The position numbers and the translations under genes were made by a program. Positions 147 to 28,804 of a DNA stretch of 32,007 bases are shown here, piece by piece; the stretch's first letter is position 1; every line of letters begins with the position of its first letter. The DNA is from a bacterium. Its GTDB lineage: Bacteria > UBP6 > JAFGXH01. The DNA is taken from positions 1-32,007 of the forward strand of contig JAMOQH010000151.1 in assembly GCA_027064085.1 (NCBI GenBank), given 5' to 3'. The notes beneath the pieces were generated by a model. It was not told the origin of the DNA and searched no databases. It saw only the letters and a program-made list of their open reading frames with translations.

Positions 147-1826
147 ATGAAAAAACTGTATTTTTTAATCCTTTTTATCATTTTTATTCTTTCCTGTGGA
201 GGAAAAGATTCAGATAAAGTGAATTTATGCAAAGATGTAGATTGTTCAAACAAAGCAAATTCACATTGCAATGAAGGCATTTGTGTATGCGATTTGGGAT
301 ATCATGAAGATGGTGAACAATGTACAATTAATGAAAATAACCCATGTTTAAATATTGACTGCTCAAACAAAGCAAATTCACATTGCAGTGAAGGCATTTG
401 TGTATGCGATTTGGGATATCATGAAGACGGAAATAATTGTATTACAAATGAACTTCCTCTCTTTAAAACATTCCCCCTAAATGGCTTAATTCTTGATAAA
501 AATGAAAGTGTAGATTTAAAAAACACTCTTTTCATAATGCAGGGAGATGGCAATTTGGTTTTATATCAGAAAGAAGATTCACAACCTTTATGGAACACCA
601 CAACAAATGGAGCAACTTGTGGACTTGATTGTAGTTATAAATTTGTTTTTGAAACAAATGGCAACCTAGTTGTATTCGATGAAAATAATAATGTAAAATG
701 GCATTCCAATACAGCAAATATTGGAGTTAATCACTTAACTATTGATGAAACTAAACTGGGTTTATATGATGCTCAAAACCATTTAATATGGAGCTCAACA
801 TGTGATAGTGGTGATTTAGTTAATGCTCCGTGCAATCTATATAATCCATGTGACGATACAAACTGTCCCCAAAATTCTATATGTCACCTAAATAATAGTA
901 ATCAAGCAGAATGCCTATGTAATGAAGGTTATGAATCAGATGGCAACAACTGTATTGAAATTGATAAATGTGAAAATGTGGATTGTTCAGAACACTCAAC
1001 ATGTAATTCAAATAATGGTAGATGCTACTGTGACAACAACTATCATTCAAGTGCTGATGGTAGAAGTTGTATCGCTGATAACATATGTGAAACTTTAAAT
1101 TGTTCTGATAATTCTAGCTGTAATTACAATATGGGAATCTGTACCTGTGATAATGGCTATCATGAAGACAATGGTATATGTGTTGAAAATGACCAGAATG
1201 CTTGTAATGGTTGCAACGGTCACGGAACATGCTATATTAAAGAAAATAACGACCCTGTTTGTGCATGTGATGTTGGTTATACCCCCGATGATACAGATGG
1301 TTTACATTGTGTTTTAACAACAACAGTATGTATAGGAGGGGTAATTAATTTTGATTATAATCTTGACGGAACAAATGAAACATGGTTTACCCCCAATCAA
1401 TCTGAATGTGATATGTTCGAGTTAATTAATTTTGTAAGAGCAGTACATGATAAAGAAGGCTCTCCTGAATCACATAAACCTTTGGGATATAATGTTCTTT
1501 TTTCAGCTTATGGAAGACAACACTCACAGAGAATGACTATGTCCCCTATTTCCAATGATAACCCTGAAAGATATGGAGAATTTGAACATGGAGATTTTCC
1601 TCCCGGATGGGGTGGCCAAAATATAGCATACAGTGGTGACTCTCATAGTCATATGGGAATGTATATGGGGTGCCGTGACCCACGAGAACCAATTTGCGTA
1701 TCTAGTGGAGAAGGACATTGTAATGCAATGTCACATCACTGTAATATAATGAGACCTCGTTTTAGTTCTGTTGGAGTTGGAATTTATGATGTTGGCTATG
1801 AATATAGCACTCAAAATTTTCAATAA
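147..1826 (+). CDS. Modular surface lipoprotein: EGF-like repeats, bulb-lectin-like domain, CAP domain
   Basis: The ATG at 147 follows AAGGAG (137-142) by 4 nt and opens directly on a lipoprotein signal peptide. An in-frame GTG at 117 has no such support. The mature N-terminus is Cys17 (lipobox ILSC, then GG). The 559 residues divide into two EGF-like modules (about 27-98), a bulb-type-lectin-like domain (about 102-220, with QGDGNLVLY and ETNGNLVVF repeats of the mannose-binding QxDxNxVxY type), four more EGF-like modules (about 233-388) and a CAP/SCP/PR-1-like domain (about 418-559, with RQHSQRM, GGQNIAYSG and MRPRFSSVGVG). The likely role is a surface or periplasmic adhesin or carbohydrate-binding protein; the function of the CAP domain is unknown. 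The stop lies 2 nt from the stop of the opposing gene. The first two EGF modules are a recent duplication. The domain calls are by motif. Confidence 0.85.
   Translation: MKKLYFLILFIIFILSCGGKDSDKVNLCKDVDCSNKANSHCNEGICVCDLGYHEDGEQCTINENNPCLNIDCSNKANSHCSEGICVCDLGYHEDGNNCITNELPLFKTFPLNGLILDKNESVDLKNTLFIMQGDGNLVLYQKEDSQPLWNTTTNGATCGLDCSYKFVFETNGNLVVFDENNNVKWHSNTANIGVNHLTIDETKLGLYDAQNHLIWSSTCDSGDLVNAPCNLYNPCDDTNCPQNSICHLNNSNQAECLCNEGYESDGNNCIEIDKCENVDCSEHSTCNSNNGRCYCDNNYHSSADGRSCIADNICETLNCSDNSSCNYNMGICTCDNGYHEDNGICVENDQNACNGCNGHGTCYIKENNDPVCACDVGYTPDDTDGLHCVLTTTVCIGGVINFDYNLDGTNETWFTPNQSECDMFELINFVRAVHDKEGSPESHKPLGYNVLFSAYGRQHSQRMTMSPISNDNPERYGEFEHGDFPPGWGGQNIAYSGDSHSHMGMYMGCRDPREPICVSSGEGHCNAMSHHCNIMRPRFSSVGVGIYDVGYEYSTQNFQ
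246..430 (+). repeat. Recent tandem duplication of an EGF-like module
   Basis: Bases 246-313 and 363-430 match over 68 nt with only two differences (A/G and T/C), 117 nt apart. That equals 39 codons, one EGF-like module plus linker. The remaining EGF modules of the same gene are much more divergent, so this copy is young. Confidence 0.8.
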
Positions 1827-1828
1827 AA

Positions 1829-2839
1829 TCAAAAACGACTCTTTAAGTATTCATTACCTTTTTCTGTTCTTACATATTTTTGTTTGGGACTTCTTGGTTT
1901 TTCCGGGATAGTATACTTAATATATCCTTCTTTTATTGCAGGTTTTAAATAGGTATTATAAAATGATTCTCTGTCTTTAAGCTCCAAAGCACTCATTATT
2001 TCTTTTGAAGTAACCGGAGACTTAGTTATTTCAAGCATTATTTTAAATTTTAAAGTTTTTGATGAATAAGCAATGCCGTTTTCCTTAGACTCCATAAAAC
2101 TTATTGATTCTTTCTTATGCTCTTTAAAAACAGTTTTTTTAGGAATATTATCATTATCAGCATTAAGAATTAATACTCTGATTTTATTTCCAAATAAATA
2201 CTCATCCTTTACATCTATGGCATCAACAAATCTTCTATCTTTTTTATTACCAAGAAAATATTTTATAATAATTTTATTACTATCAAAAATACTAAGTTCA
2301 ATAGGAAAATTATTTTCATAATTGTACTCGTATAATGCTTTATTTATTGCATTTTCAACAATTTCGGGTGAAATGTTCCATAATTTATCTTTTGAATATA
2401 ATAAATTTCTTTTTACAAACAGAATCAAATTATCTTTTATGTTAATTATTTTATTTTTTATTTCTCTATTATCAATAACTTCAGTATCTGAAATAAATGA
2501 ATTACACTTCACTAAAACTTCTTTTTCTGAAATAAGAATAGTTTCTCTCATTTCTTTTGTTGCAGGAATAATTTCATCTTCTTTTATTATAAATCTTATA
2601 AATTCATAACCAAATTCTGTATCAAGTTTTAAAAAAGTATCAATTTTATTAGATTTTATATTTAAAATATAATTATTTTCCTTATTTTTAAACCAATAGT
2701 CTGGGATATTTATTATTTTATCTTTAATAGCTATTTCTAAATCTTGGAGATCATAATTTTCTATAAAAATCTCTCCACCACTAACATTTGATAATGCAAC
2801 TATATACTTTAATATATCATCTAAATCTTTGAAAAACAT
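1829..2839 (-). CDS. Divergent Schlafen/AlbA_2-type (COG2865-like) putative regulator
   Basis: The protein has 336 residues. The N-terminus has IVALSNVSGGEIFI, matching the 'Ala-Asn-x-x-GG' core of AlbA_2/Schlafen DNA-binding domains. The middle (about 155-195) resembles the 'PEAIREALINALVHRDY' region of the RecG-like regulator family, but the usual HRDY is replaced by YEYNY. The C-terminus is a typical winged-helix end: SKEIMSALELKDRESFY, a YLKPAIKEGYI segment, then TIPEKPRSPKQKY. In characterised relatives these proteins are transcription regulators or toxin/defence-associated factors; the role here is not known. It is the last gene of the salvage operon, starting 2 nt after the hpt stop, with a GAGG ribosome site. 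Losses in the ATPase-like region suggest a degenerate or specialised member. Confidence 0.6.
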   Translation of the reverse strand: MFFKDLDDILKYIVALSNVSGGEIFIENYDLQDLEIAIKDKIINIPDYWFKNKENNYILNIKSNKIDTFLKLDTEFGYEFIRFIIKEDEIIPATKEMRETILISEKEVLVKCNSFISDTEVIDNREIKNKIINIKDNLILFVKRNLLYSKDKLWNISPEIVENAINKALYEYNYENNFPIELSIFDSNKIIIKYFLGNKKDRRFVDAIDVKDEYLFGNKIRVLILNADNDNIPKKTVFKEHKKESISFMESKENGIAYSSKTLKFKIMLEITKSPVTSKEIMSALELKDRESFYNTYLKPAIKEGYIKYTIPEKPRSPKQKYVRTEKGNEYLKSRF

Positions 2840-2841
2840 TT

Positions 2842-3375
2842 TTATTCCTCAATAAATTCCATAACGCCTATATAAGGAAGGTTTCTATATCTTTCATCAT
2901 AGTCTAAACCGTATCCTAATACAAATTTATCCGGAATAACAAAACATTTATAGTCTATTTTAACATATTTTTCTATATTTGAAGGTTTTTCTAGTAAAGT
3001 ACATATTGCAACAGAAGCAGGTTTTCTCTTTTCAAAGTTTTTCAATAAAAAACTTAAAGTAAGACCTGTATCTACAATATCTTCAAGAACGATAACATGC
3101 TTTCCTTCAATACTGTCTTTTAAATCTGCTGTAATTTCAACTTCACCAGTTGATTTAGTTCCACCTTTATAAGAACTTAAACCAATAAAATCAGTTGTAA
3201 CTCTTGTAGAATTTATTTCTTTAAGTAAATCAGACATAAACATAAAAACGCCCTTTAAAACGCCTACAAAAACTACATCTTTCCCTTTATAATCATTGTT
3301 TATTTGAGTAGCAACTTCCTTTACTTTTAGAGCTATCTCCTCTTTTGATATTAATTGATGAACCTTTTCTATCAT
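2842..3375 (-). CDS. hpt: Hypoxanthine phosphoribosyltransferase
   Basis: Salvages hypoxanthine (and usually guanine) to IMP/GMP with PRPP in the cytoplasm. At 177 residues it has the usual length. The PRPP-binding loop VIVLEDIVDTGLTL is complete, the N-terminal VFVGVLKGVFMF substrate region is present, and KFVLGYGLDY plus ERYRNLPYIGV near the end match the purine-binding part of type I HPRTs. The ATG is preceded by AGGAG. It lies 9 nt after the upp-like gene and 2 nt before the regulator-like gene, all on the minus strand, as one nucleotide-salvage transcription unit with tdk. Confidence 0.95.
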   Translation of the reverse strand: MIEKVHQLISKEEIALKVKEVATQINNDYKGKDVVFVGVLKGVFMFMSDLLKEINSTRVTTDFIGLSSYKGGTKSTGEVEITADLKDSIEGKHVIVLEDIVDTGLTLSFLLKNFEKRKPASVAICTLLEKPSNIEKYVKIDYKCFVIPDKFVLGYGLDYDERYRNLPYIGVMEFIEE

Positions 3376-3384
3376 TGCTTACTC

Positions 3385-4194
3385 CTATATATAATTATTA
3401 TTTATAATTTCACCTAAACCGCCAGCACCAGGAAGAATATATTTACTTTTAGTTAAACTCTTTTCTCCTTCTGGGTTTTCACCTATTTCAGAATCTAAAC
3501 TTTCTTTAGTTGATAAGCCCCTATCATATCTTACTGCCATAATAGTAACATCAGGATGCGAATTCGTTATAGTTTTTACATATTCTGGAGTTACAATTAA
3601 ATGCATTACTATAATTTTAACATCTTTATGCATAGATTTATATAAGTCTATAACTTTTTTAATTGAACTTCCACTTGCTCCCATAGGATCGGGTATTAAA
3701 ATATAACCATTTGAAAATTCAGGAATTATTTTCATTCCAGCTAAAACAGTATTTACACTATTTGCCTCTTCTGCAATATCTCGACTTGCCATAATATGGT
3801 CAAAAATGACATTATCAGGGTTCAAATATAAATTAAGATTATCAAAACAAATTTGCCCAGGAATCATACCGGCTCTTGCAACATCACAAACTAAGACTTT
3901 TGTATCAGGGTCTATTACTTTAGCCGTAAAAACTCCATTAGCATCATGTTCAAGCATTCTAGTTTTAAATTCCAACTCTTTTTTAGGGAAACAAGTAGAA
4001 ACAACATTATTTAAAAGTACTTTGTATAAATCTCTTAGATAAATATTAATCATAGGCTGTTTTACCTCTGGCGTAGATAATTTTGCCAGTATAGAAAAAG
4101 CATAAATATCATCTAAAATATAAATATTTTCTCCTAGATGATGTTTCAAATAAGTGTTTTCATTTGTAAACTGAAAATGGGCTTTATCCCTCAT
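3385..4194 (-). CDS. upp: Uracil phosphoribosyltransferase-like protein (long, divergent form)
   Basis: Expected to convert uracil and PRPP to UMP. The fold is recognised from the PRPP loop ILIPDPMGASGSS (residues about 166-177; classic Upp has DPMLATGGS), the upstream VCDVARAGMIPG segment (classic 'LRAGL') and a C-terminal YILPGAGGLGEII where Upp has a YIVPGLGDAGDR-type uracil-binding end. At 269 residues it is about 60 longer than E. coli Upp, the extra length being mostly N-terminal. Its start overlaps the end of tdk by 11 nt, with a GGAG ribosome site inside tdk, so the two are probably translationally coupled. The altered uracil pocket means that substrate specificity is inferred, though tdk and hpt as neighbours fit a salvage role. 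Confidence 0.8.
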   Translation of the reverse strand: MRDKAHFQFTNENTYLKHHLGENIYILDDIYAFSILAKLSTPEVKQPMINIYLRDLYKVLLNNVVSTCFPKKELEFKTRMLEHDANGVFTAKVIDPDTKVLVCDVARAGMIPGQICFDNLNLYLNPDNVIFDHIMASRDIAEEANSVNTVLAGMKIIPEFSNGYILIPDPMGASGSSIKKVIDLYKSMHKDVKIIVMHLIVTPEYVKTITNSHPDVTIMAVRYDRGLSTKESLDSEIGENPEGEKSLTKSKYILPGAGGLGEIINNNYI

Positions 4195-4765
4195 TGTTTT
4201 CTCCTTTATTATCTATTGAAAAATGTAATCTACACCTTGGTTCATACTGAGCCTTTGCCCCTAAAACGACCAACTCATCTGATGAAATCATCCTTAATGA
4301 CCTACTTGCAGGGTTACCACAAACAGTACAAATTGCTTGGACTTTAGTTACATATTCAGCCACTGCCATAAGTGAAGGGATAGAACCAAATGGCCTTCCC
4401 ATATAATCTAAATCTAAACCAGCAATAATAACCCTCTTTCCTTGATTTGCCAAATCATTAACTACATCAATAATATCATTACTAAAAAACTGAGCTTCAT
4501 CTATACCTATAACATCAATATCTTCAATATCATGATGGTAAATATCCTTGATATTGCTTAATGGCTGTGCTTTAAAATAAGCATTTGAGTGAGAAACAAT
4601 GTCATTATCATCATAACGAGTATCCATGGCAGGTTTAAACGCCATTATTTTTTGTTTGGCAATTTTAGCCCTTTTAACTCTTCTAATAAGCTCCTCTGTT
4701 TTACCAGAAAACATCCCACCAGCAATAACCTCAATAAAACCAGTTTTTTCTACATAAACATTCAT
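4184..4765 (-). CDS. tdk: Thymidine kinase (type II, zinc-containing)
   Basis: Phosphorylates thymidine to dTMP with ATP. The sequence shows the P-loop GGMFSGKTEELI, DIDVIGIDEAQFF (Walker-B/DEAQ), AGLDLDYMGRPFG (lasso/substrate region) and a zinc site CTVCG followed by RCRLHF, as in the TK1-like family. An in-frame TTG at 4786 would add seven residues. I chose the second of two adjacent ATGs (4763-4765) because GGAG lies 4 nt upstream, giving 193 residues, close to the usual 190-205. It is the first gene of the minus-strand operon tdk-upp-hpt-regulator. Confidence 0.93.
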   Translation of the reverse strand: MNVYVEKTGFIEVIAGGMFSGKTEELIRRVKRAKIAKQKIMAFKPAMDTRYDDNDIVSHSNAYFKAQPLSNIKDIYHHDIEDIDVIGIDEAQFFSNDIIDVVNDLANQGKRVIIAGLDLDYMGRPFGSIPSLMAVAEYVTKVQAICTVCGNPASRSLRMISSDELVVLGAKAQYEPRCRLHFSIDNKGENNEG

Positions 4766-5606: not shown

Positions 5607-6785
5607 ATGTTCTCTCCACAAACAACTAATAATAAAACGACATCTCCTTATAAGTTCAATACACCAAAGAAAAGAAAAAAACATAAAAAAAGCCTTAGTA
5701 AAAAACAACTTTATAAAAAAGGAAAAAAATATTATTATCGTCACAATAAAACTAAAGCTATTTATTTCTATAAAAAATCATGTAAATTTAAGTATCCTCA
5801 AGCATGTTTTGAACTTGGAAACCTATACAAAAAGAAATCAATAAAAAATATTCCATTATCTTTAGATTATTTTAAAAAAGCATGTAAAATGAATTATGCA
5901 GATGCTTGCACATACCTATACAATTTTTTTAGAAGAGAAAAAAAAGAAGAGGAAAAAGAATTTTATCTCAAAAAAGCATGTAAACTAGGAAATAAATATT
6001 CTTGCAGGACAATTAAAAGGCAAGAAGAAAGAATTATAAGAATAGAAAAGCAGAAACAAGAAAAAGAAAAAGAATTTGAAAAACTTATTAAATCTTGTAA
6101 AGCAGGAAGAGTATCATCATGCAATAGATTAAAATTGAAAAATTTTCAAATAGCAATTAAATCATTCTATCATCAAGACTATGATAAATCTAAAAAACTA
6201 TTTGAAAACTCATGTAATGATGGATATAAAAAATCATGTCGTTATTTGGGTATAATTTACTTAAAAAATAATGATTTAAGTAATGCTGAAAAATATTTTG
6301 AGATATCATGTAAATCCAATGATCCTATTGCCTGTAACATGAAAAAAGCATTAAACTATAAAAAAGCTTGTAATAATGATAATGCTATTAATTGTCGTAA
6401 CCTTGCCAAAGCTTATGAAAGGGGAAATTATTTAAGAAGAAATTTTATTAAAGCTATTAAATATTATATAAAAGCTTGTTCACTAAATGATAATGTATCA
6501 TGTAAGAAAGCAGGAGAATATTATAGATATAATTATAAAGTAAAAGATCTAAAAAAAGCTTATACCTTCTATGAAAAAGCTTGTAAACTTAAAAATAACG
6601 AAAGCTGCAGTATACTTATAATATTAAAGCTTGATAAAGAATGTAAATCTAAAAACGCAATTTCATGTGATAAATTAGGAAATTTATATGATGAAGGAAA
6701 AGATATTAATAAAAATATAAGAAAGGCAAATGCATATTACAAAAAAGCATGCGAGTATGGACATAAAATTTCATGTGATAAGTAA
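5607..6785 (+). CDS. Sel1-like repeat protein with eleven CX7C cysteine pairs, no signal peptide
   Basis: The ATG at 5607 follows GAGGAG (5593-5598) by 8 nt; an in-frame TTG at 5577 has no ribosome site and follows an in-frame stop closely. The 392 residues start with a basic stretch (PKKRKKHKKSLSKK), then a series of about 35-residue helical Sel1/TPR-like units. Eleven carry a CX7C pair of the form KAC-x7-C, and most have A-x-x-Y/F-Y-x-K-A-C. The Cys pattern resembles the Helicobacter Hcp proteins, where each pair forms a disulfide in the periplasm. Here no Sec signal or lipobox can be seen, even from the longer start. A long charged helix (KRQEERIIRIEKQKQEKEKE) interrupts the repeats at about residues 140-165. 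The likely role is a protein-protein scaffold. The stop is 5 nt from the opposing thiI stop. Confidence 0.85.
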   Translation: MFSPQTTNNKTTSPYKFNTPKKRKKHKKSLSKKQLYKKGKKYYYRHNKTKAIYFYKKSCKFKYPQACFELGNLYKKKSIKNIPLSLDYFKKACKMNYADACTYLYNFFRREKKEEEKEFYLKKACKLGNKYSCRTIKRQEERIIRIEKQKQEKEKEFEKLIKSCKAGRVSSCNRLKLKNFQIAIKSFYHQDYDKSKKLFENSCNDGYKKSCRYLGIIYLKNNDLSNAEKYFEISCKSNDPIACNMKKALNYKKACNNDNAINCRNLAKAYERGNYLRRNFIKAIKYYIKACSLNDNVSCKKAGEYYRYNYKVKDLKKAYTFYEKACKLKNNESCSILIILKLDKECKSKNAISCDKLGNLYDEGKDINKNIRKANAYYKKACEYGHKISCDK

Positions 6786-24593: not shown

Positions 24594-24794
24594 TCATTTA
24601 CATTTAGTTCTACACTCTTTAACTTCTACAGAACATTTTTCTATACACTTATCATTATTTTTACAGTTATTCACACATTTTCCATATTCTGTACTACATT
24701 TAGTGTTACATTTATTTTTAGAACTTTGCTCGAAAGCTGATAAATCTGTTAAAAACAAAAACATAAAAAACATTAATATTAAACTTATTCTCAT
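24594..24794 (-). CDS. Small secreted twin-CX3C cysteine-rich protein
   Basis: 66 residues. The first 20 are a clear Sec signal peptide (ISLILMFFMFLFLTDLSA), probably cut after LSA. The mature 46 residues are charged and contain eight cysteines in four CX3C motifs with spacing CX3C-X6-CX3C-X5-CX3C-X6-CX3C. Twin CX3C pairs normally make a disulfide-clamped alpha-hairpin (as in small Tims or alpha-hairpinins), so this would fold as two stacked hairpins. Cytoplasmic contact before export, metal binding or a toxin-like peptide are other readings. AGGAGGAG (24797-24804) and an upstream promoter-like element make it a real gene. It lies opposite the kamD end, 16 nt from its stop. Confidence 0.75.
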   Translation of the reverse strand: MRISLILMFFMFLFLTDLSAFEQSSKNKCNTKCSTEYGKCVNNCKNNDKCIEKCSVEVKECRTKCK

Positions 24795-24948: not shown

Positions 24949-25100
24949 ATGAAAAAAAAATTGCAATTGTAACAACTATGATATATACTTGAATACTTTC
25001 ATTTTTTGGATTTACATTCATTACCTCTATTATTGGTGAGAGTTTAAGAACCAGAAGCCATTCTTTTAGAGGTCGCTCTTATGGAGGGGAAGGAAAATAG
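24949..25100 (+). pseudogene. Decayed small membrane-protein gene
   Basis: From 24993 to the TAG at 25098 the frame is open and reads ILSFFGFTFITSIIGESLRT and on to a basic, Gly-rich tail (RGRSYGGEGK). Extending upstream, the same frame has a TGA at 24990-24992, then KKIAIVTTMIYT. The ATG at 24949 is followed by nine A and is out of frame by one; a tenth A would join ATG-AAA-AAA-AAA to that frame. One lost A and a TGA in place of TGG or another codon therefore explain it as a roughly 50-residue protein with one membrane helix. Its stop is 1 nt before the preferred phosphatase start. The open part could be chance. Confidence 0.4.
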
Positions 25101-25101
25101 T

Positions 25102-25599
25102 ATGATTCATAGACTATTTTTGATGAGACATTCAATTACTGAAAGTTTTGCAACTAGTGATTTTCAAAGAAATTTAACTAAACTTGGTAAAATAAAAGCT
25201 AAAAACCAAGCTATTAAATTAGAACTTTTTTTTAAAAATAAGGATATTAATTTAGGATATTGTTTTTATAGTTCGGCAAATAGAGCAGAGCAAACTTTTG
25301 ATATAGTACATAAAACAATGGAATTAAATATAGCCACTCATAAAACAAGAGCCTTATATTTAACGGGCATAAAGGAGTTAAAAAATATATTTAAAACATA
25401 TAAAAAAGATATAGAAAACACTGAAAACATATTGATTATTGCACATAATTTCGGTATTTCAGACACTGCATCTGTTTTATGTGGTAATGAAACTTATATG
25501 GATACAGCAGATATAGTTGCTTTAAGTATTGATATTGATGATAACTGGCACAGCTTATTAGATTATGAAGGTAGTTGGGATATTATTAGTAAATTATAA
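25102..25599 (+). CDS. SixA-like histidine phosphatase
   Basis: I prefer the ATG at 25102 over the one at 25081 because MIHRLFLMRHS matches the standard start of the family (M-x-R-L-x-L-x-R-H). AAGGA lies about 8 nt upstream. The 165-residue protein has the phosphohistidine-phosphatase layout: RHS (His10 nucleophile), NLTKLGKIKA, YSSANRAEQT (phosphate-binding Arg), and IIAHNFGISD with the second His. SixA removes phosphate from histidine of phosphotransfer proteins, but the substrate here is unknown. The last 15 residues (HSLLDYEGSWDIIS...) occur again, slightly changed, after the Rpn-like gene: see the repeat at 26276. The current C-terminus may have been replaced by an insertion. Confidence 0.85.
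   Translation: MIHRLFLMRHSITESFATSDFQRNLTKLGKIKAKNQAIKLELFFKNKDINLGYCFYSSANRAEQTFDIVHKTMELNIATHKTRALYLTGIKELKNIFKTYKKDIENTENILIIAHNFGISDTASVLCGNETYMDTADIVALSIDIDDNWHSLLDYEGSWDIISKL
25544..25599 (+). repeat. Copy 1 of a 56-nt direct repeat (present 3' end of the phosphatase gene)
   Basis: It aligns without gaps to 26276-26331 (offset 732). Bases 25559-25587 are identical to 26291-26319 (29 of 29); four mismatches lie upstream of that core and several in the last twelve bases. It encodes HSLLDYEGSWDII then SKL and TAA. Confidence 0.85.
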
Positions 25600-26275
25600 A
25601 TTTAAAAACTCCTCACTTTTTAATAAAAATCTTCTTGCAGAAATCAATATTACAAGTTATACTAAATTAGGAGGGCTAAATGGTAAAAAGGCAAGAAGAC
25701 AGAATAGGTAACCGTTATGATAAAACCTTAAAAGAACTTTTAGATAATAAAACTTTAATGAAAGAATTAATAATAGGTTTTATAGATAAAGATTGGGTAA
25801 GAGGCTTAGATTTTCAAACATTAAAAAAAGAAAAAACAGACTTTTTATCAGAAGATTTAAAACAAATAGATAATTTATTGAGTAATATTTTAGCAACAGA
25901 TAATAAAAAAATAAATCAAGAGTCTTTAAATGAAATAATTTTAAAAATAAAATTAATATTATCAGGTTATGATAAAGAAAAAGAATTAATAATGCTTGAT
26001 AAAATAAATAAATTTATTAAATTGATAAGCAGTGATAGAATAGATATAAAAGAAGCCTTAAAAACTTTAAATGAGGAGGATAACATGGGTGGAATGATGA
26101 GATTGATTAATGAATTAGAAAAGAAAGGTATGGAAAAAGGTATGGAAAAAGGTAAAATAGAAGCAAAACTTGAATTTATTAAAAGAATGAACAAAGCAAA
26201 TATTAACATTAAGCAAATATCAGAGATATCAGGATTTAGTGTTGAAGAAATTCAAAAAATACTTAATGAGAAATA
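25600..26275 (+). mobile_element. Rpn-like cassette bounded by the phosphatase 3'-end repeat
   Basis: The segment between the two repeat copies contains only an 80-nt leader and the Rpn/YhgA-like gene, whose TAA overlaps the first base of repeat copy 2. Rpn-family genes are dispersed, recombination-associated elements. No integrase, no terminal inverted repeats and no resolvase site are visible, so the element may move by homologous or Rpn-type recombination. That it is mobile is inferred. Confidence 0.4.
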
Positions 26276-26276
26276 A
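25680..26276 (+). CDS. Rpn/YhgA-family (PD-(D/E)XK transposase-like) protein lacking its nuclease core
   Basis: 198 residues with a strong AGGAGG ribosome site. The N-terminus (RYDKTLKELLDNKTLMKELIIGFI, then DFQTLKKEKTDFLSEDL) is that of Rpn/YhgA proteins. The C-terminus (KKGMEKGMEKGKIEAKLEFI, then NIKQISEISGFSVEEIQKIL) is the family's usual tail, with an EKG repeat and a final helix-turn-helix-like segment. Full-length members have about 300 residues and, right after the 'SEDL' point, the nuclease core (D-x-x-W/Y-K-x-K, L-L-E-x-Q-S). That core is missing here: residue about 57 runs into the central helical part. The reading frame is intact, so this is an in-frame internal deletion. Catalysis is not expected; the product might act as an inhibitor or partner of full-length copies. 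Confidence 0.7.
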   Translation: MVKRQEDRIGNRYDKTLKELLDNKTLMKELIIGFIDKDWVRGLDFQTLKKEKTDFLSEDLKQIDNLLSNILATDNKKINQESLNEIILKIKLILSGYDKEKELIMLDKINKFIKLISSDRIDIKEALKTLNEEDNMGGMMRLINELEKKGMEKGMEKGKIEAKLEFIKRMNKANINIKQISEISGFSVEEIQKILNEK

Positions 26277-26331
26277 CGGGCACAATTTACTAGATTATGA
26301 AGGTAGTTGGGATATTATTTATGGAAAATAA
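26276..26331 (+). pseudogene. Copy 2 of the repeat: displaced original 3' end of the phosphatase gene
   Basis: In the phosphatase frame this reads HNLLDYEGSWDIIYGK and TAA (26329-26331). The stop overlaps the recG ATG at 26321. That is the arrangement expected if the phosphatase gene once ran directly into recG with an 11-nt overlap, like tdk/upp in this window. The substitutions relative to copy 1 (HS to HN, and different last residues) show the two copies have diverged or came from different strains. Confidence 0.6.
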
Positions 26332-28804
26332 TTTAACAATTGAAGATTATAGATTAAATATTTTAAAAATGCTTGATTTTGCGATTAAAGATAACTACAA
26401 ATATTTTACTCAAGTGAAGAATTTAGAAATAACTCTTTATAAAATCATTGAAAATATTAGAAATACAATAAGAGACGAAAGTATAGGTAAAAAGCTAAAA
26501 AAGTTTGAATTTGATTTAAAGTCTTATAATTTTGCAACTACAAAAAATAAACAAAAAATATTAACAGAACTATATGATTTTTTTAAAAACAAAGATTTTT
26601 CTCCATATAGCCAAAGCTATATAAAACCTAACACATTTTCTTTAAATAACTCCACAAATAGAACGACAAATAAACAATCTATAAAAGAAAATAAATCTAG
26701 AAATTCAACATTAATAAATACAAATAAAGCTGATATGAAAATATTTTTCAAACAAGTTAATGATTTGCCTTTTGTTACAGAAGCAGAAGCTAAAAAATTG
26801 AATAAAAAAAATATTTTTACAGTTATGGATATACTCTACACTCTTCCTAAGAAGTACGAAGATTGGAGTAAACTAAACAGAATTGAATCTTCTTTGGTCG
26901 GAGAAGATACTCAATTTATGGGAGTTGTTAAATCTAAAAAATATATCACAGGAAGGCGAAAATATATGGAAATATTGTTTTCTACTCAATCTGGTAATTT
27001 AAAAATAATTTTATTTAATTATAAACAAGCTGGATTTTTGTTTCAAATAGACCAAGATTACTTAATAAGAGGAAAACTACAATATAATACATACTATAAA
27101 TACCATTTTATACACCCTCGAGTGATTAGGCTTAATGGTAAAGAAGAAATAACTACATTCCTTGATTCAACAATAAGGTATCCTGATACAGGAGTAAATG
27201 AAGAAAGATTTTCTGAAATAGTATTAAAACTACTTGATAATTACAAAGAAAAGTTTGCAGATTTCATACCATATTCCTTCTTAAAAGAAAATAAATACTT
27301 CCCCTTCTATGAAAATATGATAGCTCTACATAAACCAAATTTAAAAGAAATTAACTTATCAGAATTAAATACAAAAACCTCAATTTATAATGAAAGGCTT
27401 AAATTTGAAGAATTTTTCTTACTTCATATATCTAATTTACTTAAAAAAGAAAAAGTTAAAAAGAAAAAAGGAATAGAGATTAAAGTTGATTTTTCACTAC
27501 ATCAATTTTTTATAAAATCTCTCCCTTTTGAACTTACAAAAGGTCAATTAAAGTCAATTTCAGACCTTTTTGAAGACTTAAGGGGTAAATATCCTGCAAA
27601 TAGGTTAATTCAAGGAGATGTAGGAAGTGGTAAAACAGTAGTTGCCATTACTGCATTATTACAAACAGTAAAAGCAGGATATCAAGCAATTATTATGGTT
27701 CCTACAGAAATTTTAGCCTATCAACATCAAAAGACTTTAAGTAAAATATTAGAACCATTTGATATACAAGTACAATTATTTGTAAGTAAAATGAAAAAAC
27801 GAATAAAAGACACCGTTTTAATGCAAATGGAATATGGTGCCCCTCAAGTTTTTATTGGAACTCATGCTTTAATTCAAAAAAATGTAAGATTTAAAAATCC
27901 AGGAATTGTAATTGTAGACGAACAGCATAGGTTTGGGGTATTACAAAGAAAATCCCTCCAAGATGTTGCAAAAGGTGTAAATGTCGTATTAATGAGTGCA
28001 ACCCCTATACCAAGGACTCTATCTATGGGCGTATTCGGAGATTTGGATATTTCATATATTGAAGAGATGCCAAAATCAAGAAAGCCTGTTAAAACTATTG
28101 TTATTACAGATGAAGAGGATAAACTTTCGGATATGTTTCAATTTTTAAAAACAGAAATAAATGAAAATAAACAAGCTTATATAATATTTCCATTAATAGA
28201 AGAAAGTGACGCAATAGAGGCTAGATCATTATTAAAAAACTATGAGGAATTAACTAAAAAATATTTTAATGGAATAGAAACTGCATTTTTACATGGAAAA
28301 CTATCTTCTACTGAAAAAGAAGATGCCATGAACAGATTTAAAGATAATGAAGTTAAAATATTATTTTCTACAACTGTTATAGAAGTTGGTATTGATGTTC
28401 CAAATGCTACAATAATGATAATTATGAATAGCGAAAGGTTTGGTTTGAGTCAATTACACCAAATTAGAGGTAGAATTGGAAGAGGTGAAGCTAAATCATA
28501 TTGTTTTTTAGTTTCTCCAAAAGAGGATGTTAAAAGACTTAAAATAATGGAAAATAACCGTTCAGGATTTGAAATAAGTCGTGAAGACTTAAAACTAAGA
28601 GGCCCTGGAGACCTATATGGAGTTGACCAAAGTGGAATTCCTAAATTTAGATTTATTGATTTTGATAAAGATGAATCTATAATATTAGTTGCATCTCAAG
28701 CAGCAAATAGATATATAAAATACGACCCTCAATTTAAAAAAAATAAATTTCTAAGAGATTTTTTAGCACTATTAAAAGAGAATAGTTACTGGGAAATTAG
28801 TTAA
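26321..28804 (+). CDS. recG: ATP-dependent DNA helicase RecG
   Basis: Branch-migrates stalled forks and Holliday junctions. I chose the ATG at 26321 (827 residues) because the eight codons before it belong to the phosphatase-derived repeat. N-terminal extension of about 130 residues, with a poorly conserved linker (about 95-140), then the wedge/OB domain (about 150-280; YILTGRRKYME-type region), and the helicase domains: Walker A GDVGSGKTVVA (about 431), DEQHRFGVLQ (about 532; Walker B DEQH), MSATPIPRTLSMG (motif III), EVGIDVPNATIM (motif V) and QIRGRIGRGEAKSYC (motif VI). E. coli RecG has 693 residues; longer N-termini occur in other bacteria. The ribosome site is poor (GGGA, 9 nt away) because it lies in the repeat; translation may depend on coupling to the Rpn-like gene. 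Confidence 0.95.
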   Translation: MENNLTIEDYRLNILKMLDFAIKDNYKYFTQVKNLEITLYKIIENIRNTIRDESIGKKLKKFEFDLKSYNFATTKNKQKILTELYDFFKNKDFSPYSQSYIKPNTFSLNNSTNRTTNKQSIKENKSRNSTLINTNKADMKIFFKQVNDLPFVTEAEAKKLNKKNIFTVMDILYTLPKKYEDWSKLNRIESSLVGEDTQFMGVVKSKKYITGRRKYMEILFSTQSGNLKIILFNYKQAGFLFQIDQDYLIRGKLQYNTYYKYHFIHPRVIRLNGKEEITTFLDSTIRYPDTGVNEERFSEIVLKLLDNYKEKFADFIPYSFLKENKYFPFYENMIALHKPNLKEINLSELNTKTSIYNERLKFEEFFLLHISNLLKKEKVKKKKGIEIKVDFSLHQFFIKSLPFELTKGQLKSISDLFEDLRGKYPANRLIQGDVGSGKTVVAITALLQTVKAGYQAIIMVPTEILAYQHQKTLSKILEPFDIQVQLFVSKMKKRIKDTVLMQMEYGAPQVFIGTHALIQKNVRFKNPGIVIVDEQHRFGVLQRKSLQDVAKGVNVVLMSATPIPRTLSMGVFGDLDISYIEEMPKSRKPVKTIVITDEEDKLSDMFQFLKTEINENKQAYIIFPLIEESDAIEARSLLKNYEELTKKYFNGIETAFLHGKLSSTEKEDAMNRFKDNEVKILFSTTVIEVGIDVPNATIMIIMNSERFGLSQLHQIRGRIGRGEAKSYCFLVSPKEDVKRLKIMENNRSGFEISREDLKLRGPGDLYGVDQSGIPKFRFIDFDKDESIILVASQAANRYIKYDPQFKKNKFLRDFLALLKENSYWEIS

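What the first reader, a model, noticed from the sequence alone, without database searches (positions are those of the whole stretch)
25544..26331. Insertion that replaced the 3' end of a phosphatase gene and left its old end fused to recG
The last 56 nt of the SixA-like gene occur again 732 nt downstream, with 29 of 29 identical bases in the core. Copy 2 reads in the phosphatase frame to a TAA that overlaps the recG ATG, the arrangement expected before an insertion. Copy 1 carries different final codons, so the cassette seems to supply a substitute gene end, as some prophages do in icd. Here the cassette is only about 0.7 kb, holds one Rpn-like gene and no integrase. That would be a very small gene-end-restoring element. 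The divergence between copies argues against a simple recent target-site duplication.
Basis: partly seen in the sequence, partly recalled or inferred. Interest (0 to 1): 0.65.

Follow-up and report, generated by a model that had tools for sequence, protein, structure and literature searches.

The report
Toxin-family gene inserted with long duplication
A small toxin-family (Rpn) gene inserted between two bacterial genes and duplicated about 47 letters of the upstream gene's tail, so that both neighbours stayed usable; the same scar around other Rpn genes shows that these genes, reported in 2023 to carry no target-site duplications, can insert with long ones.

Summary
The repeat is real: 25541-25587 and 26273-26319, 43/47 identical, 732 nt apart, enclosing a 685-nt unit (promoter, ribosome site, rpn gene ending at its stop). 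Copy 2 holds the old sixA end overlapping recG; copy 1 ends in codons and a stop that appear to come from the insert. It is not a phage-type element: no integrase, and other rpn copies are flanked by repeats (41-86 nt) that all differ in sequence, so the repeat is duplicated target DNA. In this phylum 5 of 20 testable rpn genes have such repeats versus 2 of 417 control ORFs. In another phylum, two sister species show the empty site of an rpn insertion with the same layout (187-nt duplication). Uma2 and VapC-like genes occasionally show it too, so it is not rpn-only. It matches 'insertion with long target duplication', described for restriction-modification genes, and conflicts with the published statement that rpn genes lack target duplications. 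The window's rpn lost its nuclease core by an in-frame deletion but keeps the internal antitoxin start. The empty sixA-recG site was not found (no close relative held); the DNA mechanism (template switching or staggered-break repair) is inferred.

The parts
25081..25599 (+). SixA-like phosphohistidine phosphatase gene; last codons (SKL) and stop appear insert-derived
   Evidence: TIGR00249 E=4e-14, below cut-off; codons compared
25541..25587 (+). Copy 1 of the 47-nt target duplication (functional sixA end)
   Evidence: keeps the Trp conserved in SixA homologues
25588..26272 (+). Inserted rpn cassette, 685 nt
   Evidence: Lies between the two repeat copies; promoter block shared with other rpn copies
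25635..25663 (+). Promoter-like TTGCAG-17 nt-TATACT, conserved upstream of rpn copies
   Evidence: Alignment of eight rpn leaders
25669..25674 (+). AGGAGG ribosome-binding site of rpn
25680..26276 (+). rpn gene with the nuclease core deleted in frame (198 aa)
26085..26276 (+). Possible RpnS antitoxin (63 aa) from an internal start after GAGGAGG (26073-26079)
   Evidence: Sequence; RpnS as in PMC10327210; expression not tested
26273..26319 (+). Copy 2 of the duplication: old sixA end, now recG leader
26320..26331 (+). Old last codons and stop of sixA (YGK, TAA), overlapping the recG start
26321..28804 (+). recG
   Evidence: Pfam helicase and RecG domains; start supported by homologues

Best explanation
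An rpn cassette (own promoter, RBS and ORF, ending at its stop) inserted at the 3' end of sixA, and about 47 nt of the target were duplicated. SixA keeps its length because copy 1 carries its end and the insert provides the last codons and stop; recG keeps its start because copy 2 carries its leader. [quoted passage not shown] Shown: the repeat, the cassette between the copies, recurrence of the pattern, an empty site at another locus. Inferred: that sixA and recG were adjacent before; that the insert supplied copy 1's last codons; that the duplication arose in repair or replication (a polymerase returning upstream of its departure point after template switching, or filling of widely staggered nicks); that a nuclease such as Rpn may supply the breaks; that the nuclease core was lost afterwards by an in-frame deletion, leaving an antitoxin-only form.
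For: Window repeat scores 35 versus a shuffled maximum of 20. Same geometry around rpn copies C69 (49 nt), C20 (86 nt) and C32+C148 (41 nt; contig ends share an identical 77 nt) in this genome, and G024:C157 (41 nt) and G012:C235 (44 nt) in other families. Repeat sequences all differ. 5/20 rpn versus 2/417 control ORFs, Fisher p=2e-6. Native stop in copy 2 and altered stop or run-on in copy 1 at G024, G012 and G319. Empty sites in G328 and G324 for G319's rpn; its two copies are each other's closest relatives, 95.7% versus at most 93.6%. Conserved Trp lost only in copy 2.
Against: No relative holds sixA next to recG, so the empty site at this locus is unseen. 15 of 20 testable rpn genes here, 12 of 12 plasmid rpn genes and about 58 of 61 in the second phylum (tandem array excluded) have no such repeat. 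In two second-phylum cases the copies differ in ways that suggest homologous gene ends rather than a decayed duplication. No Ku was found, so one route of end joining is unlikely.
Confidence: 0.75

Rival explanations
1. Site-specific integrative element that carries a substitute gene end (prophage-in-icd type), now lacking its integrase.
For: Copy 1 has different final codons from copy 2; several repeats lie at gene 3' ends.
Against: Repeat sequences and lengths differ at every site; no integrase between the repeats; empty sites have one ordinary gene end.
Confidence: 0.05
2. One-sided homologous recombination (homology-facilitated illegitimate recombination): a donor sixA-rpn fragment recombined within sixA and was joined illegitimately inside the recipient sixA end, so that copy 1 is a donor allele and copy 2 the recipient remnant.
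For: Copies differ; two second-phylum cases (L223, L224) have copies whose differences look protein-constrained, 13 of 14 codon changes synonymous in L224.
Against: In the window copy 2 has lost a conserved Trp; five other repeats are 98-100% identical; in G319 the copies are sisters. It needs a donor that already had rpn after sixA.
Confidence: 0.13
3. Autonomous transposition driven by Rpn itself.
For: Enrichment of long repeats around rpn; RpnA cuts DNA and leaves 3'-OH ends, and primer-template switching was proposed for it (PMC5350276).
Against: Uma2 and PIN genes show the same scar; no constant ends; most rpn genes show no repeat; the window copy has no nuclease core (it may have lost it later).
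Confidence: 0.18
4. Tandem duplication of sixA-end plus rpn followed by deletion of the second rpn, or a chance or assembly artefact.
For: rpn arrays by tandem duplication exist (L190; PMC10327210).
Against: Copy 2 runs straight into the recG start, with no rpn remnant; similar scars in several genomes and an empty site; chance excluded by shuffles.
Confidence: 0.04

Closest known systems
Insertion with long target duplication (Nobusato et al. 2000, Gene 259:99; described in PMC3031569, PMC1643837, PMC3874152)
   Same: Toxin/defence-type genes without a transposase inserted with long, variable target duplications ('in the order of 100 bp'), seen by comparison with a related genome
   Different: Known examples are restriction-modification genes; here rpn (and Uma2, VapC-like), with repeats of 41-187 nt, several at gene 3' ends
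Rpn (YhgA-like, PF04754/TIGR01784) genes; RpnL/RpnS toxin-antitoxin (PMC5350276, PMC10327210)
   Same: Sequence family, four-residue repeat region, internal ribosome site and start for RpnS
   Different: PMC10327210 reports no target-site duplications and no evidence of autonomous mobility; the window copy lacks the nuclease core
Insertion sequences and transposons with short target-site duplications
   Same: Direct repeats of target DNA flank the insert
   Different: Repeats much longer and variable; no transposase; no constant ends
Prophages or islands that restore a gene end (icd, tRNA genes)
   Same: The target gene gets a new 3' end
   Different: No integrase, no common attachment core

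Membership tests
Insertion with long target duplication | Insert flanked by long direct repeats of target DNA that differ from site to site | tested here: met
   41-86 nt in this phylum, all different
[quoted passage not shown]
   Met for the G319 rpn; no relative with adjacent sixA and recG available for the window locus
Insertion with long target duplication | Insert is a restriction-modification gene set (as in the described cases) | tested here: not met
   Insert is rpn; same kind of event with other cargo
Rpn family | PF04754/TIGR01784 similarity | tested here: met
   Window copy: C-terminal half of TIGR01784, E=1e-11, 45 bits, below the 52.1 cut-off; 62-89% identical in matching parts to full-length paralogues that pass the PF04754 cut-off
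Rpn family | PD-(D/E)XK catalytic core | tested here: not met
   114 aa including the D...ExQ region deleted in frame in the window copy
RpnL/RpnS toxin-antitoxin | Internal start making the C-terminal antitoxin | tested here: inconclusive
   GAGGAGG and ATG at 26085 present; expression not testable here
Site-specific integrative element | Integrase and common attachment core | tested here: not met
   No integrase ORF between the repeats; repeats unrelated in sequence
Insertion sequence / transposon | Constant ends with short fixed-length target duplication | tested here: not met
   Copy 1 ends 31-155 nt before the rpn start and copy 2 begins from about 10 nt before to 28 nt after its stop; repeat length 41-86 nt

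The most novel reading that the evidence does not exclude
Rpn (and related PD-(D/E)XK single genes) actively drive insertion of their own cassette by a nuclease-primed template-switching reaction that duplicates 40-190 nt of target and tends to land at gene ends: a transposase-free mode of mobility, of which nuclease-less copies such as the window's are non-autonomous or antitoxin-only derivatives.
Probability: 0.18. Interest if true: 0.85.

Novelty: new member of a known kind. Interest (0 to 1): 0.5.

Why it matters
How rpn and similar small toxin or defence genes spread without a transposase is open, and the main recent paper found no target duplications around rpn. Repeats around several rpn genes plus an empty site give a concrete scar to look for, link rpn to the little-followed 'insertion with long target duplication', and make the question testable in related genomes or in a laboratory strain. 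The layout also explains how an insert can split an overlapping gene pair and leave both genes usable.

Tried and rejected
Empty sixA-recG site: the only relatives held (G001, G002 and one GTDB contig) have sixA and recG apart or lack the junction. Plasmid rpn loci from Leptospira, Photobacterium, Serratia, Citrobacter, Klebsiella, E. coli, Vibrio and Arsenophonus: no repeat close to the gene. Ku-dependent end joining: no Ku found. Site-specific attachment: repeats unrelated. Rpn specificity: weakened by Uma2 (two loci) and one PIN locus of 30. C104, C102 and C67 rpn copies: no repeat even with permissive alignment. C69 and C20 are counted as target duplications although their repeats lie at or past the gene stop rather than inside the gene. 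The key papers on restriction-modification genes (Nobusato 2000; Furuta 2010) were not readable here and are cited through papers that describe them.

Full report
Observation. The repeat is as described: 25541-25587 and 26273-26319, 732 nt apart, 43 of 47 identical, the last 29 nt identical; its score is far above 1000 shuffles (35 versus 20). Copy 1 is the end of a SixA-like gene (TIGR00249, E=4e-14, below cut-off). Copy 2 starts at the stop codon of the intervening rpn gene and runs in the sixA frame to a TAA inside the recG start.

What lies between. The 685-nt unit holds a promoter-like TTGCAG-17-TATACT, an AGGAGG and an Rpn ORF that ends at copy 2. The genome has 33 match segments to this protein, roughly 20-25 rpn copies, many at contig ends, sharing the promoter block. 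The window copy lacks 114 residues that include the PD-(D/E)XK core; the deletion is in frame, and two other copies (C102, C159) have different in-frame deletions. The internal GAGGAGG-ATG that could make the C-terminal antitoxin remains (26085), as in the RpnL/RpnS systems of PMC10327210.

Is it repeated elsewhere? Yes. In the same genome C69 (49 nt), C20 (86 nt) and, across a contig break with an identical 77-nt overlap, C32/C148 (41 nt) have repeats that flank the cassette. In other families of the phylum G024:C157 (41 nt, last codons of an aromatic amino acid lyase) and G012:C235 (44 nt, last codons of a transglycosylase) show the same; G012:C76 has a 40-nt repeat around an rpn plus a second gene. 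With one criterion, 5 of 20 rpn genes and 2 of 417 control ORFs are positive (p=2e-6); one control hit is a repeat between intergenic regions, the other lies in a repeat-rich protein region. In about 530 kb of this genome other repeats of this spacing were mainly repeat proteins and gene arrays, apart from a 70-nt repeat around an integrase/AbiE island.

What was duplicated. The repeats have unrelated sequences, so they are target DNA. At G024 the repeat ends inside the stop codon (copy 2 continues TA|A; at copy 1 the next base makes TAG); at G012 it ends just before TAG and the gene now runs on into the insert. The native end is therefore in copy 2 and the altered end in copy 1, as in the window. 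The relatives' SixA proteins share NW...LLD.G.W: copy 1 keeps the Trp, copy 2 has Gly. The unchanged 29 nt of copy 2 are recG's leader, which would explain why the mismatches sit only in its 5' part (inference). The sequence after copy 1 (ATTATAAATTTAAAA, then TCCTCACTT) resembles the region upstream of rpn copy C104 by eye, which suggests, but does not prove, that the new sixA stop came with the insert.

Empty site. For the sixA-recG locus none could be found. For a second-phylum rpn (G319, L161) it could: G328 and G324 carry the glycosyltransferase-9 gene running directly into the DNA found beyond the second repeat (89-90% over 1297 nt), with one copy of the 187-nt gene end. In G319 the copies are closest to each other (95.7%), the native last codons are in copy 2, and copy 1 has new codons and stop. 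In G333 the same gene end is followed by a Uma2 gene and a 68-91-nt duplicate of the gene end, with relatives G334 and G325 empty. A further Uma2 follows atpC with a 148-nt duplicated atpC end, and one of 30 PIN loci has a 106-nt repeat of a sulfatase-like gene start. The scar is thus not rpn-specific. In two second-phylum rpn cases (L223, L224) the copies differ in a way expected of homologous gene ends, and one-sided recombination fits those better.

Mechanism. The scar means that the insertion joined one end upstream and the other end downstream of a 40-190-nt overlap. Template switching with return upstream of the departure point, or filling of widely separated nicks, both give this; Ku was not detected. 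RpnA makes 3'-OH ends and primer-template switching was proposed for it (PMC5350276), but whether Rpn drives its own insertion is not shown here, and the scar around Uma2 and PIN genes argues that the process may be general. Insertions at gene ends survive because a long duplication leaves the upstream gene an end and the downstream gene its leader; no targeting need be assumed.

Prior knowledge. The kind of event is known: 'insertion with long target duplication' (Nobusato et al. [quoted passage not shown]). The original paper was not readable here. [quoted passage not shown] the present cases qualify the first statement and leave the second open.

Verdict. Observation confirmed, interpretation partly supported: an old insertion with target duplication by a now nuclease-less rpn cassette, not a gene-end-restoring site-specific element.

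Noticed in passing
L236 (G000:C159) 738-4228: Tyrosine integrase and AbiEii-type toxin gene lie within a 70-nt, 99% identical direct repeat 3.4 kb apart; probably a small integrative island.
   Followed up: partly
window 25680-26276; L034 (C102) about 2200-2560; L039 (C159) about 5970-6500: Three rpn copies have different internal deletions of the nuclease core, all in frame, and keep the leader and the internal antitoxin start.
   Followed up: partly
L030, L033, L036 upstream of rpn; L026, L031, L037 downstream of rpn: A repeated sequence with inverted ends (ATTCGTAAT ... ATTACGAAT) sits next to several rpn copies; possibly a miniature element.
   Followed up: no
L190 (G313:C1:550000-558000): Tandem array of four rpn genes with duplicated spacers.
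   Followed up: no
L161 and L251: The 3' end of the same glycosyltransferase-9 gene received rpn in one species and Uma2 in another species of the same genus.
   Followed up: partly
L297 (G328:C270): Uma2 gene directly after atpC with a 148-nt duplicated atpC end, about 95% identical.
   Followed up: partly
L317 (G324:C115): PIN (VapC-like) locus flanked by a 106-nt, 97% identical repeat of a sulfatase-like gene start.
   Followed up: partly
L024 5645-7634 (G000:C133): 119-nt, 94% direct repeat 1.9 kb apart around an ORF that reads like a pyridine nucleotide-disulphide oxidoreductase; origin unclear, possibly an interspersed repeat.
   Followed up: no
window 24594-24794 (-): Small cysteine-rich secreted-looking ORF (66 aa) between the upstream gene and sixA; no Pfam match.
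   Followed up: no
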